64,000 nt of DNA from the NCBI GenBank assembly GCA_030431255.1, contig JAUIJL010000009.1, positions 62,001-126,000 on the forward strand, written 5' to 3'. The position numbers were made by a program, and so were the translations under genes. Below are positions 59,316-64,000 of this stretch, one piece after another (within the stretch, counting starts at the first letter, position 1; every line of letters starts with the position of its first letter). Source of the DNA: Thermoanaerobaculia bacterium. Lineage in GTDB: Bacteria; Acidobacteriota; Thermoanaerobaculia; Multivoradales; J023. The notes beneath the pieces were generated by a model that saw only the letters and a list, made by a program, of their open reading frames with translations, was not told the origin of the DNA and did not search any database.

Positions 59316-59568
59316 TCTTACCCCGAAGGGGTTAGATCCAATAGCCCAGGGTAAGCGAAGCGCCACCCTGGGTTCGAAAGCACGTGAATCCCGAACCCTG
59401 AAGGGGTTCTACAAACGCTGCAAACACGCAATTTCCTACGATTCAACACGGATAGTTGGGACCACCGTTTGTGAAACCCCGTTGGGGTTTGGGACGGGAT
59501 GGCCACACGACCCAGGACGGCGCTTCGCTTGTCCTGGGCTGATGAATACAACCCCTTCGGGGTAAAGA
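59316..59568. repeat. Long inverted-repeat element (about 102-nt arms, 48-nt centre)
   Basis: Left arm 59316-59417 and right arm 59466-59568 are imperfect reverse complements over their whole length. Shared blocks include ACCCCGAAGGGGTT, CAGCCCAGG/TAGCCCAGG and AAGCGAAGCGCC. Smaller palindromes nest within each arm (e.g. ACCCCGAAGGGGT). Frames on both strands give peptides that resemble each other (K-R-S-A-x-L-G, G-F-x-K-R, R-F-A-x-P-G-L), as expected of a palindrome and not evidence of genes. Similar AACCCC(N)GGGGTT-type elements are abundant in Planctomycetes and Verrucomicrobia genomes. Confidence 0.85.
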
Positions 59569-59754: not shown

Positions 59755-61350
59755 CTAATCTCCATTGGTCCCTGGCGGGCATCCTTGGAGGCCTCTCGAC
59801 GGACGCCACCGCTCATCGAGCCAGTGTCGTGGCCGTTGTAGGGCCTCCGGAATCTCTGTTTCAGAATCTCCACAGGTGGAAATCAGCTGCTTCTGAGTAA
59901 GGTTGCGAGTTTCCGCCAACTTTGCTCCGTAGAGCTTCGCGCCTCGAAGGTTCACGTTGATGAGATCCGCACCGTTGAAGCTCGCCCGGAAGAGGTATGC
60001 GCCACTGAGATTCACGTGGTTTAGGATTGCGTCGCCGAGATTCGCTTCCGCGAGGCTCGCTCCTTCGAAATTGGCGCTGCTGAGGCTCACGCCGCTGAGA
60101 TCAATACCACTAAGGTTCGCGCCACTGAGGTTCGCGCAGCTGAGGCTCGCGCCACTGAGTTTAGCGCCGCTAAGGCTCGCGCCACTGAGGTTCGCGCCAC
60201 TGAGGCTCGCACCACTTAGGTTAGTGCGCTTGAGGCTCGCACCACTGAGATTCGCGCTCCTGAGGTTCGCGCTCCTGAGATCTGCACCGAAAGAGATGGC
60301 TGCTTCGCTGAGGTTCGCGCCTTCGAGGTTCGCGTAGCTTAAATGCACACCCTCGAGGTTCGCGCCATGGAGATCTGCACCTTCAAGATTCGCGCCGACA
60401 AGTTCCGCTTGGCTGAGGATCGCGCCACTGAGATCTGCCCCTTCGAGGTTCGCGCCGCCAACTTCCGCGCGGCTAAGGTTAGCGCGCTTGAGATCTACGC
60501 CGCTAAGATCCACGCTACTGAGGTTCGCGCCATGGAGATTTACGCCTCTGAGGTCCATTCCGGAAAAGTCAACATCGACAAGTGTCAGGTTAGACAGCCC
60601 GGCTCTTCTGATCAACCGGGAGATCACATCGGGGCTTTCCTTCCTTTGCTCAAGCGCTCTTTGCAACCCCAACTCCTTCAGATTGGAATCTTTGCTTCCC
60701 AGCAGCTCAGCCGCGAGCTCCAGAGAAGTCTTGCCGGATGTTGCGCTCAGCTGTTCCCGCAGTCTATCGTTCTCTGCGCTGAGTCGAGTCATCTCTGCTG
60801 TTACGGCCGACAGATCCAAGTCGGGAGGTCTCACCCAGCCCTTCAGATCCTCTCGCTTGTCGAGGGTCGACATGGACTTGAAGACTGCCAGCTGAATATC
60901 TCTCGATTCCTTCCAGAACTCGACGATCCTCTCGGATATCACCAACTCGCGAAACTCTTTGAGCTTCTTCGGGTGCTTCATCTCCAGGAGCTTGCTCCCT
61001 CCCCCGCTCGCTACCCGCTCTTCTAGAGCGTCCTCGTCGGCAACCACCGCGAATAGCGGCTTGCCGATCTCTTGTGCGTATTCAAATTCGAGGTGGGTGT
61101 AGCTCTTTCCGGTGGTGGGCTCAATGCTGCCGTAACGCCCGCCTAGGATGAGCAAATAGACGTCGGACTCGTCGATCCATTGCTTGATTACGGCCATCTG
61201 GGACTCATCCCCGGCGGTGAAAAGCTCCATGCCTGCCGGGATATGGCCAGCCGTCAGAATCGCGCCGACAGCGGCTTGCCGCTCTTCGATGAGGTCCGTG
61301 AACGTCGAGGAAACAAAAACTTGCAGGCGGCGCTTGACGAAATCAGCCAA
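59755..61350 (-). CDS. DUF4062 - coiled coil - pentapeptide-repeat protein
   Basis: 531 residues. Residues 6-110 match DUF4062 (R-L-Q-V-F-V-S-S-T-F-T-D-L-I-E-E-R, Y-L-L-I-L-G-G-R-Y-G-S, S-Y-T-H-L-E-F-E-Y-A), a Rossmann-like domain often fused to NTPase or repeat modules in bacterial conflict proteins. A helical linker (about 120-250) contains a coiled coil (T-A-E-M-T-R-L-S-A-E-N-D-R-L-R-E-Q-L). About 45 pentapeptide repeats A(D/N)LxG run from about 255 to 490, forming a quadrilateral beta-helix. There is no signal peptide. A decayed TIR gene lies beyond its start. Function unknown; a role in defence or stress sensing is inferred from the domain mix. Confidence 0.88.
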   Translation of the reverse strand: MADFVKRRLQVFVSSTFTDLIEERQAAVGAILTAGHIPAGMELFTAGDESQMAVIKQWIDESDVYLLILGGRYGSIEPTTGKSYTHLEFEYAQEIGKPLFAVVADEDALEERVASGGGSKLLEMKHPKKLKEFRELVISERIVEFWKESRDIQLAVFKSMSTLDKREDLKGWVRPPDLDLSAVTAEMTRLSAENDRLREQLSATSGKTSLELAAELLGSKDSNLKELGLQRALEQRKESPDVISRLIRRAGLSNLTLVDVDFSGMDLRGVNLHGANLSSVDLSGVDLKRANLSRAEVGGANLEGADLSGAILSQAELVGANLEGADLHGANLEGVHLSYANLEGANLSEAAISFGADLRSANLRSANLSGASLKRTNLSGASLSGANLSGASLSGAKLSGASLSCANLSGANLSGIDLSGVSLSSANFEGASLAEANLGDAILNHVNLSGAYLFRASFNGADLINVNLRGAKLYGAKLAETRNLTQKQLISTCGDSETEIPEALQRPRHWLDERWRPSRGLQGCPPGTNGD

Positions 61351-61477
61351 CGGTAAACCCTTCCCTCACTTGATAGCGATACTGTCGTCCTTCAGGCAAA
61401 TCTTACCATTGTGACTCGCTCCACATGTCTGTCGACGCGATTCTCTTCGGCGTCTACCTAAGTAGCGCGGACCTGAA

Positions 61478-61830
61478 TGTGCGGATCTTCGGATGCGCTT
61501 GATCGACCGCGGCATCTACATCTGGGGACAAGGCGCTCCTCTCCTTTTCGGAAGAATTTCTTCGTAGCTCCTGGGTCGAGGCGGAGGTCGGCCATGGCCG
61601 TCGAGAATGAAGAACAGCTCCCCAAGGATGGGGGCGGAAGGTCGACGCAATCATCCCCCTCGACCTCGCCGGCTACCTCGAGAGGTGGCTGGTCGGACCA
61701 CGGACCAGCGTCGATGGATCCGGATACCCTGGGCTGTAGACCAGTCCGCGACGCAGCTCAAGCGGGTGTGTCCGGCCCTTCAGACGGAACGGGCCCCAGA
61801 CACCCCTGTCGAAGCTCTAGCTGCCGTACT
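61478..61830 (+). pseudogene. Decayed TIR-domain gene fragment
   Basis: Pieces in different frames reconstruct a TIR domain: L-I-D-R-G-I-Y-I (about 61498-61522), D-K-A-L-L-S-F-S-E-E-F-L-R-S-S-W-V-E-A-E-V (61527-61589), M-A-V-E-N-E-E-Q-L-P-K (from 61594, shifted by one base), V-D-A-I-I-P-L-D-L-A-G-Y-L (from 61641, back in the earlier frame) and Q-L-K-R-V-C-P-A-L-Q (about 61760). In known TIR proteins these come in this order (IDxAIRxxDKLLLxLSE, SxWVxxEV, IPLxLDGYL). There are at least three frameshifts and stops, so it is non-functional. The relatives are often TIR-pentapeptide fusions. Confidence 0.65.
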
Positions 61831-62078
61831 CACAGCGCCCCCTCTAGTGTTGTAAAAACGGCAGAGGGTTTGCTAGCATCTCCGATCTCAAAGCTCACGA
61901 GGAAACGGGCGCTTGCCAGATCGATCTCCCCAGTTGGCGCAAGTACATATGTGGTGTAGACACATGTTAAGCTGCCAATCTGAAGGTTTCGTTGGTGACG
62001 CGGCTGGAGATGTCCATTAGTTTTCTATTCGACGTGTTAAAGATTAACTTGGGTGTGGCCACCTGTCGGGAGAAAATC

Positions 62079-62675
62079 ATGAGACTAGTCGAAAGTATGA
62101 GGGCTCGGCTCTCTCAAGGGATGGAAGCTGACCAACTCTCCAAAGCGTTGAAGTCTGTTCCCTTTGAAGCATGGGCTATTCCGGTAGTTGCTGGAATAGT
62201 TTGCTACAGCCTGTTGATGCTGGCCGCGGCGCTATTCTCCGGTGTGGCGGGTGGCTTGATCAAGTCTTCATCCAGATTTTGGACCATCCCAACATCCGAG
62301 CAGACCGCAGTTGTCTTAGGTGGAGGGTGTGCGATCTTCGTCCTCTTCTTTATTGCAGTCATTGGGGTTGGTGTGCTTTTTGTGCGCTTAGCCGTAGGAG
62401 CAGAATTACAAAGAGGACAGTTAATTGTCGGAAGCTCTTTGGCAGCCGTTTTTTCTTTCGTTCCGATAGGCCTGCTCTATGACTTAGTATCGAGTGCGCT
62501 CCACTTTGAGCCAACGATCAGCAATATCTTGTTCAAGATCTTGAGTCTATTCATCAACATTGTCTGGGTATTTACGCTTGGGGCTTTCGGCGGGTTTCTC
62601 GGCACTAAACTTCCAAGTCTCACGAACTACAGCAGCGGTATTTCAGGAGGTCGATTGGTAGACAACGATCATTGA
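62079..62675 (+). CDS. Four-TM membrane protein, lower GC than its surroundings
   Basis: 198 residues from ATG 62079, which has GGGAG 6 nt upstream. The frame is open to a TTG at 61992. A short amphipathic N-part is followed by four hydrophobic segments (about 33-58, 80-105, 118-140, 152-180). The base composition and codon use (many A/T third positions) contrast with the neighbouring genes and suggest acquisition. No family recognised. It lies just beyond the TIR remnant on the same strand. Confidence 0.7.
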   Translation: MRLVESMRARLSQGMEADQLSKALKSVPFEAWAIPVVAGIVCYSLLMLAAALFSGVAGGLIKSSSRFWTIPTSEQTAVVLGGGCAIFVLFFIAVIGVGVLFVRLAVGAELQRGQLIVGSSLAAVFSFVPIGLLYDLVSSALHFEPTISNILFKILSLFINIVWVFTLGAFGGFLGTKLPSLTNYSSGISGGRLVDNDH

Positions 62676-63893: not shown

Positions 63894-64000
63894 ATGGGAT
63901 TGTTTTCGATGAGCTTGTTTCAGATAAACCTCGTGTCGGCGACCTTGCTCTGCTCGTGGGCAGCCGGCTTCCTCTTCGCGTTTGCGGTGGTCATCATGCC
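63894..64000 (+). CDS. DUF1772 (anthrone oxygenase-like) membrane protein, 5' part only
   Basis: Open from ATG 63894 (CGGAG 9 nt upstream) to the window edge, 35 codons. The visible residues run L-F-Q-I-N-L-V-S-A-T-L-L-C-S-W-A-A-G-F-L-F-A-F-A-V-V-I-M-P, the first TM of DUF1772 proteins. Only a fragment is seen, so the family call rests on this motif and on the NmrA neighbour. Confidence 0.6.
   Translation, partial: MGLFSMSLFQINLVSATLLCSWAAGFLFAFAVVIM

What the first reader, a model, noticed from the sequence alone, without database searches (positions are those of the whole stretch)
59755..62675. Possible undescribed conflict locus: DUF4062-coiled coil-pentapeptide protein, decayed TIR gene and membrane protein
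Seen: an intact DUF4062-pentapeptide gene, a broken TIR gene beside it, and a membrane protein of lower GC, all inside a patch of high intergenic content and next to a long inverted repeat. Known: TIR and DUF4062 are signalling or effector domains recurrent in bacterial immune systems, and TIR-pentapeptide fusions exist. Inference: the pentapeptide helix is a sensor or scaffold, DUF4062 an effector or adaptor, and the membrane protein a possible partner; the TIR gene would be a lost alternative effector.
Basis: partly seen in the sequence, partly recalled or inferred. Interest (0 to 1): 0.75.

Follow-up and report, generated by a model that had tools for sequence, protein, structure and literature searches.

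The report
Swarozyc-type NADase with pentapeptide-helix sensor
A bacterial gene joins a probable NAD-destroying, anti-virus "suicide" enzyme of a kind first described in 2026 to a long pentapeptide beta-helix in place of the usual virus-sensing tail; this looks like a natural sensor swap and has not been tested in the laboratory.

Summary
The gene at 59755-61350 (-) is real and intact. Residues 1-205 match KpSwz, the founding protein of the Swarozyc antiphage system (PDB 10wc, E 1.4e-28; preprint PMC13174449, May 2026), in which DUF4062 is a TIR-like NADase. The catalytic Glu aligns with E88, invariant in all 66 aligned proteins. The rest is predicted as a small helical cap and a continuous pentapeptide beta-helix (about 45 repeats), replacing the portal-binding C-terminal domain of KpSwz. 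None of 84 other homologues examined carries pentapeptides; in a tree the module falls among proteins with the ordinary short C-terminal domain, so a C-terminal swap is the simplest history. The "broken TIR gene" is a frameshifted C-terminal remnant (about 61434-61691) of a pentapeptide-TIR protein; an intact 499-aa relative exists in the same bacterial family. The membrane protein is a low-GC orphan with no evidence of partnership. The inverted repeat is a dispersed genomic repeat. A relative has the flanking genes without the cargo, and a complete HEC-01 candidate defence pair lies about 11 kb away. Verdict: probable single-gene NADase abortive-infection system with an exchanged sensor, a new variant of a just-described kind. 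Activity and trigger are inferred.

The parts
59755..61350 (-). DUF4062-stalk-pentapeptide gene, 531 aa, TTG start with a GAGGGAAGG ribosome-binding site
   Evidence: homologues start at the same place
60826..61350 (-). TIR-like DUF4062 module (aa 1-175), predicted NADase effector
   Evidence: phmmer to KpSwz 10wc E 1.4e-28 over aa 5-204; AF2 mostly pLDDT above 90; Foldseek to RPS4 TIR E 1.6e-4; DNPH1/MilB Z about 12.9
61087..61089 (-). codon of E88, equivalent of catalytic E97 of KpSwz
   Evidence: aligned with the E97A position of 10wc; invariant in 66 sequences
60736..60813 (-). helical stalk (aa 180-205)
   Evidence: AF2 helix 180-205; aligned with the KpSwz stalk start
60592..60735 (-). 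helical cap or linker (aa 206-253)
   Evidence: three helices in both AF2 models; no homologue found
59911..60591 (-). pentapeptide beta-helix (aa 254-480, about 45 pentapeptides)
   Evidence: PF00805 7e-88; single-sequence AF2 pTM 0.78, mostly pLDDT above 90 over the helix; 4yfo Z 18.7
59758..59910 (-). C-terminal tail (aa 481-531), motif LTxKxL...GD..T.IP.ALQRPxHW shared with other pentapeptide proteins of this genome and order
   Evidence: L135 and L033 carry the same tail
61434..61691 (+). frameshifted remnant of the C-terminal TIR domain of a pentapeptide-TIR protein (pieces 61434-61478, 61499-61528, 61527-61589, 61591-61629, 61626-61691)
61992..62675 (+). orphan low-GC membrane protein ORF; not shown to belong to the system
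59318..59565 (.). inverted repeat (arms 59318-59373 / 59510-59565), member of a dispersed genomic repeat; incidental

Best explanation
A single-gene abortive-infection defence protein of the Swarozyc kind. The N-terminal TIR-like DUF4062 domain is an NADase held inactive in dimers by its helical stalk. A phage component, or a host component disturbed by the phage, is recognised by the C-terminal pentapeptide beta-helix; assembly on that target aligns the stalks and releases NAD+ hydrolysis, so the cell dies before phage are released. Shown here: intact gene, homology to KpSwz, conserved catalytic Glu, predicted fold of each part, absence of the usual C-terminal domain, and patchy occurrence. 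Inferred: NADase activity of this protein, antiphage function, and the pentapeptide as trigger domain.
For: KpSwz (10wc) match E 1.4e-28 over aa 5-204 with the catalytic position a Glu; E88 invariant in 66 sequences; experimental work on KpSwz: NADase, portal activation, abortive infection, E97 and auxiliary domain both required. AF2: confident TIR/NDT-like fold, stalk helix and continuous beta-helix. Tree: the window module lies in a clade (93/97) with short-tailed homologues from other phyla. Patchy: 5 of 396 genomes of the phylum. The related pentapeptide-TIR architecture occurs intact in the same family. HEC-01 candidate defence pair about 11 kb away; a relative lacks the cargo between the flanking genes.
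Against: No second DUF4062-pentapeptide protein was found, so there is no conservation of the fusion to show selection on it. PADLOC counts for neighbours of homologues did not separate near from far genes. The pentapeptide could be a scaffold, localiser or inhibitor rather than a sensor.
Confidence: 0.6

Rival explanations
1. The pentapeptide array is an oligomerisation scaffold or localising part only; another protein (perhaps host gyrase or a DNA-bound factor, as for Qnr/MfpA) signals infection.
For: Pentapeptide proteins such as MfpA and Qnr bind gyrase and act as DNA mimics (own knowledge; folds matched); pentapeptides are listed as superstructure-forming domains in other conflict systems (PMC7159879).
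Against: KpSwz already oligomerises through its TIR-like domain and stalk without the tail domain. The array here has only mild net negative charge (21 D+E against 13 K+R), not obviously a DNA mimic.
Confidence: 0.2
2. A recent accidental fusion without function: a DUF4062 module joined to a resident pentapeptide gene in a decaying patch.
For: Singleton architecture; beside a decayed pentapeptide-TIR gene; C-terminal tail typical of resident pentapeptide proteins.
Against: The 531-codon frame is intact with catalytic Glu and conserved motifs kept although the window module has a long branch (0.51), and the beta-helix register is preserved over about 45 repeats. A useless NADase fusion would be expected to decay.
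Confidence: 0.15
3. A multi-gene system in which the membrane protein (61992-62675) or the intact form of the TIR gene is a required partner.
For: Adjacent in a low-GC, gene-poor patch.
Against: The membrane ORF lies on the other strand, has no homologue in 59 relatives or in plasmids and matches no family; the TIR gene is broken; KpSwz acts alone.
Confidence: 0.05

Closest known systems
Swarozyc (KpSwz, Klebsiella pneumoniae; PDB 10wc, 11cq, 11cv; PMC13174449)
   Same: DUF4062 TIR-like module, catalytic Glu position, following helical stalk; single gene; patchy distribution.
   Different: The C-terminal HTH/winged portal-binding domain is absent, replaced by a helical cap, a pentapeptide beta-helix of about 45 repeats and a tail; activity and trigger untested.
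Pentapeptide-TIR proteins of relatives (G003, L134:5824-7320; G046, L029)
   Same: Pentapeptide beta-helix joined to a TIR-superfamily domain; same bacterial order; the decayed neighbour in this window belongs here.
   Different: Order of parts reversed (pentapeptide first, canonical TIR last); TIR_2 rather than DUF4062.
DUF4062-FGE-sulfatase and DUF4062-DnaB_C proteins (L076, L090, L096, L098, L100; L069)
   Same: Same DUF4062 module with an exchanged C-terminal domain.
   Different: C-terminal part is an enzyme-like domain, not a beta-helix.
Pentapeptide repeat proteins (NP275/276, HetL, Qnr, MfpA)
   Same: Right-handed quadrilateral beta-helix fold.
   Different: No fused NADase; Qnr and MfpA act on gyrase.

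Membership tests
Swarozyc (KpSwz type) | DUF4062 TIR-like domain | tested here: met
   PF13271 7e-30; 10wc E 1.4e-28
Swarozyc (KpSwz type) | catalytic Glu (E97 of KpSwz) | tested here: met
   E88 aligned, invariant in 66
Swarozyc (KpSwz type) | helical stalk after the TIR-like domain | tested here: met
   sequence match runs to KpSwz chain residue 195; AF2 helix 180-205
Swarozyc (KpSwz type) | C-terminal HTH/winged auxiliary domain that binds the phage portal | tested here: not met
   C-terminal part is a helical cap and pentapeptide beta-helix
Swarozyc (KpSwz type) | NADase activity, portal activation, abortive infection | not testable with these tools
   needs experiment
Swarozyc (KpSwz type) | defence-island neighbourhood | tested here: inconclusive
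   HEC-01 pair about 11 kb downstream; near/far PADLOC counts of homologues not separated
TIR-like NADase superfamily (DUF4062 / STIR clan) | TIR/NDT-like fold with acidic catalytic residue | tested here: met
   Foldseek RPS4 TIR E 1.6e-4; DNPH1/MilB Z about 12.9; E88
pentapeptide-TIR family (for the remnant 61434-61691) | C-terminal TIR sequence of this family | tested here: met
   43% over 51 aa to L029, 0 of 1000 shuffles as good
pentapeptide-TIR family (for the remnant 61434-61691) | pentapeptide array upstream of the TIR | tested here: inconclusive
   only a 15-aa pentapeptide-like piece (61434-61478) remains
pentapeptide-TIR family (for the remnant 61434-61691) | open reading frame | tested here: not met
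   pieces in three frames with stops

The most novel reading that the evidence does not exclude
Natural sensor exchange in Swarozyc: the same NADase-stalk module is triggered through a pentapeptide beta-helix that recognises a different phage or host target than the portal, making pentapeptide helices a class of phage sensors shared by DUF4062 and TIR NADases.
Probability: 0.35. Interest if true: 0.7.

Novelty: new variant of a known kind. Interest (0 to 1): 0.5.

Why it matters
Pentapeptide proteins are very common in bacteria and most have no known role. A NADase of a proven antiphage family carrying a pentapeptide helix exactly where its relative carries the phage-binding domain makes a sensor role directly testable. 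It also suggests that the DUF4062 module accepts different sensors, as canonical TIR domains do.

Tried and rejected
Pfam TIR models on the three frames of the TIR remnant: no hit; identity came from a pentapeptide-TIR relative instead. PADLOC on the two intact window proteins: no hit (the 2023 library predates Swarozyc). Viral-contig scan for the module: nothing; phages: two distant hits only. Neighbour counts with PADLOC: at most 11 families among 145 near genes, more models but few evident proteins among 109 far genes; no conclusion. KpSwz did not show among the structure-search rows printed; the library ends in April 2026, so nothing follows from this. Linker aa 200-262: no homologue. Membrane protein as partner: no support. 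A promoter/terminator scan gave chance-level counts.

Full report
What is there. The window is contig C27:62001-126000 of a 10.2 Mb genome. At 59755-61350 on the minus strand lies an intact 531-aa ORF with a TTG start. Pfam finds DUF4062 at aa 10-92 (7e-30) and pentapeptides over the second half (7e-88). A model built with 66 homologues gives a confident TIR/NDT-like domain and a helix at 180-205. A single-sequence model of aa 200-531 gives three short helices and an unbroken beta-helix from about 254 to 480 (mostly pLDDT above 90, pTM 0.78), followed by a disordered tail. Foldseek matches pentapeptide proteins and, for the N-terminal part, plant TIR RPS4 (E 1.6e-4); VIA-align adds nucleotide hydrolases DNPH1 and MilB (Z about 12.9).

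Which family. A sequence search of the PDB returns KpSwz (10wc; also 11cq, 11cv) with E 1.4e-28 over aa 5-204. The preprint PMC13174449 (May 2026) reports that DUF4062 is a TIR-like NADase family, that KpSwz restricts phages by abortive infection with NAD+ loss, that the phage portal activates it, and that both E97 and the C-terminal auxiliary domain are needed. Counting along the 10wc chain, which carries E97A in a construct starting at residue 15, the mutated position aligns with E88 of the window protein (own count). E88 is invariant in all 66 aligned sequences.

What differs. Among 80 homologous loci from the genome collection no pentapeptide run occurs apart from the window's own gene. 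Most homologues have a short C-terminal domain of roughly 90-150 aa; five have FGE-sulfatase and one DnaB_C. In the window's phylum only 5 of 396 sampled genomes carry the module at E <= 1e-15, and the other four lack pentapeptides. In a tree of the module the window protein sits in a group (93/97) with short-tailed proteins from Geobacteraceae, Verrucomicrobiota, Planctomycetota, Myxococcota and Pseudomonadota. The simplest reading is replacement of the tail domain by a pentapeptide helix. The C-terminal tail of the window protein (LTQKQL...GD.ETEIPEALQRPRHW) recurs in resident pentapeptide proteins (L135, L033), which suggests the donor type.

The TIR remnant. Frames of 61351-61991 hold pieces in consistent order: a 15-aa pentapeptide-like piece at 61434-61478, then IDRGIYIWG, DKALLSFSEEFLRSSWVEAEV, ENEEQLPKD and GRKVDAIIPLDLAGYL. 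They match the TIR end of a pentapeptide-TIR protein in a genome of the same order (L029; 38.5 bits; 0 of 1000 shuffles). In a genome of the same family (G003) an intact 499-aa pentapeptide-TIR gene lies beside a frameshifted one (L134). The remnant is thus a decayed pentapeptide-TIR gene, 5'-truncated close to the start of the DUF4062 gene and divergent from it. Two NADase-type domains joined to pentapeptide helices meet in this locus, one intact and one dead.

Surroundings. In G003 the AraC-type gene (70% identical) is followed after 283 bp by the homologue of the anthrone-oxygenase-like gene at 63894, without the 4.7 kb between them here. That stretch also contains an NmrA-type gene, so part of the difference may be loss in G003. 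The inverted repeat belongs to a dispersed repeat with pieces at about ten other places. The membrane ORF is an orphan. Just outside the window, at C27:134676-136447, lies a two-gene system matching PADLOC's HEC-01 models at 3.8e-195 and 2e-69. PADLOC counts in the neighbours of homologues are inconclusive; the preprint reports that over half of DUF4062 genes neighbour a defence gene.

How it most likely works. The DUF4062 dimer is kept inactive; the pentapeptide helix binds a cue of infection, the stalks are aligned, NAD+ is hydrolysed and the cell stops before phage release. The NADase step is supported by homology and active-site conservation; the sensing step is inference from the position of the domain and from the pentapeptide-TIR parallel. 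Rivals are a scaffold-only role, a non-functional fusion and a multi-gene system; reasons are given in those fields.

Novelty. DUF4062 as an antiphage NADase is known since May 2026. The word pentapeptide does not occur in the main text of that preprint; its supplement could not be read, so the architecture may be listed there. I therefore class this as a new variant of a known kind, not as a member of the KpSwz type, since the auxiliary domain was tested and is absent.

Noticed in passing
L125:10677-12448 (window coordinates 72676-74447, beyond the window end): Complete two-gene HEC-01 candidate defence system (AAA ATPase and small partner) about 11 kb from the DUF4062 gene.
   Followed up: partly
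L134:4973-7320 (G003:C53): Tandem pentapeptide-TIR genes in a relative, one intact (499 aa), one frameshifted.
   Followed up: partly
59318-59565: Long inverted repeat with CCCCGAAGGGG-type ends, pieces dispersed at about ten other genomic places.
   Followed up: partly
L002 (G000:C15:501324-501512): Second, divergent DUF4062 in the same genome, at the start of a 1065-aa open frame with a P-loop motif resembling STAND-type proteins.
   Followed up: no
L076, L090, L096, L098, L100: DUF4062 modules fused to FGE-sulfatase domains in Thiotrichales, another C-terminal exchange of the same effector module.
   Followed up: no
61992-62675: Orphan low-GC (48.8%) membrane protein with no homologue in 59 relatives or in plasmids.
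   Followed up: partly
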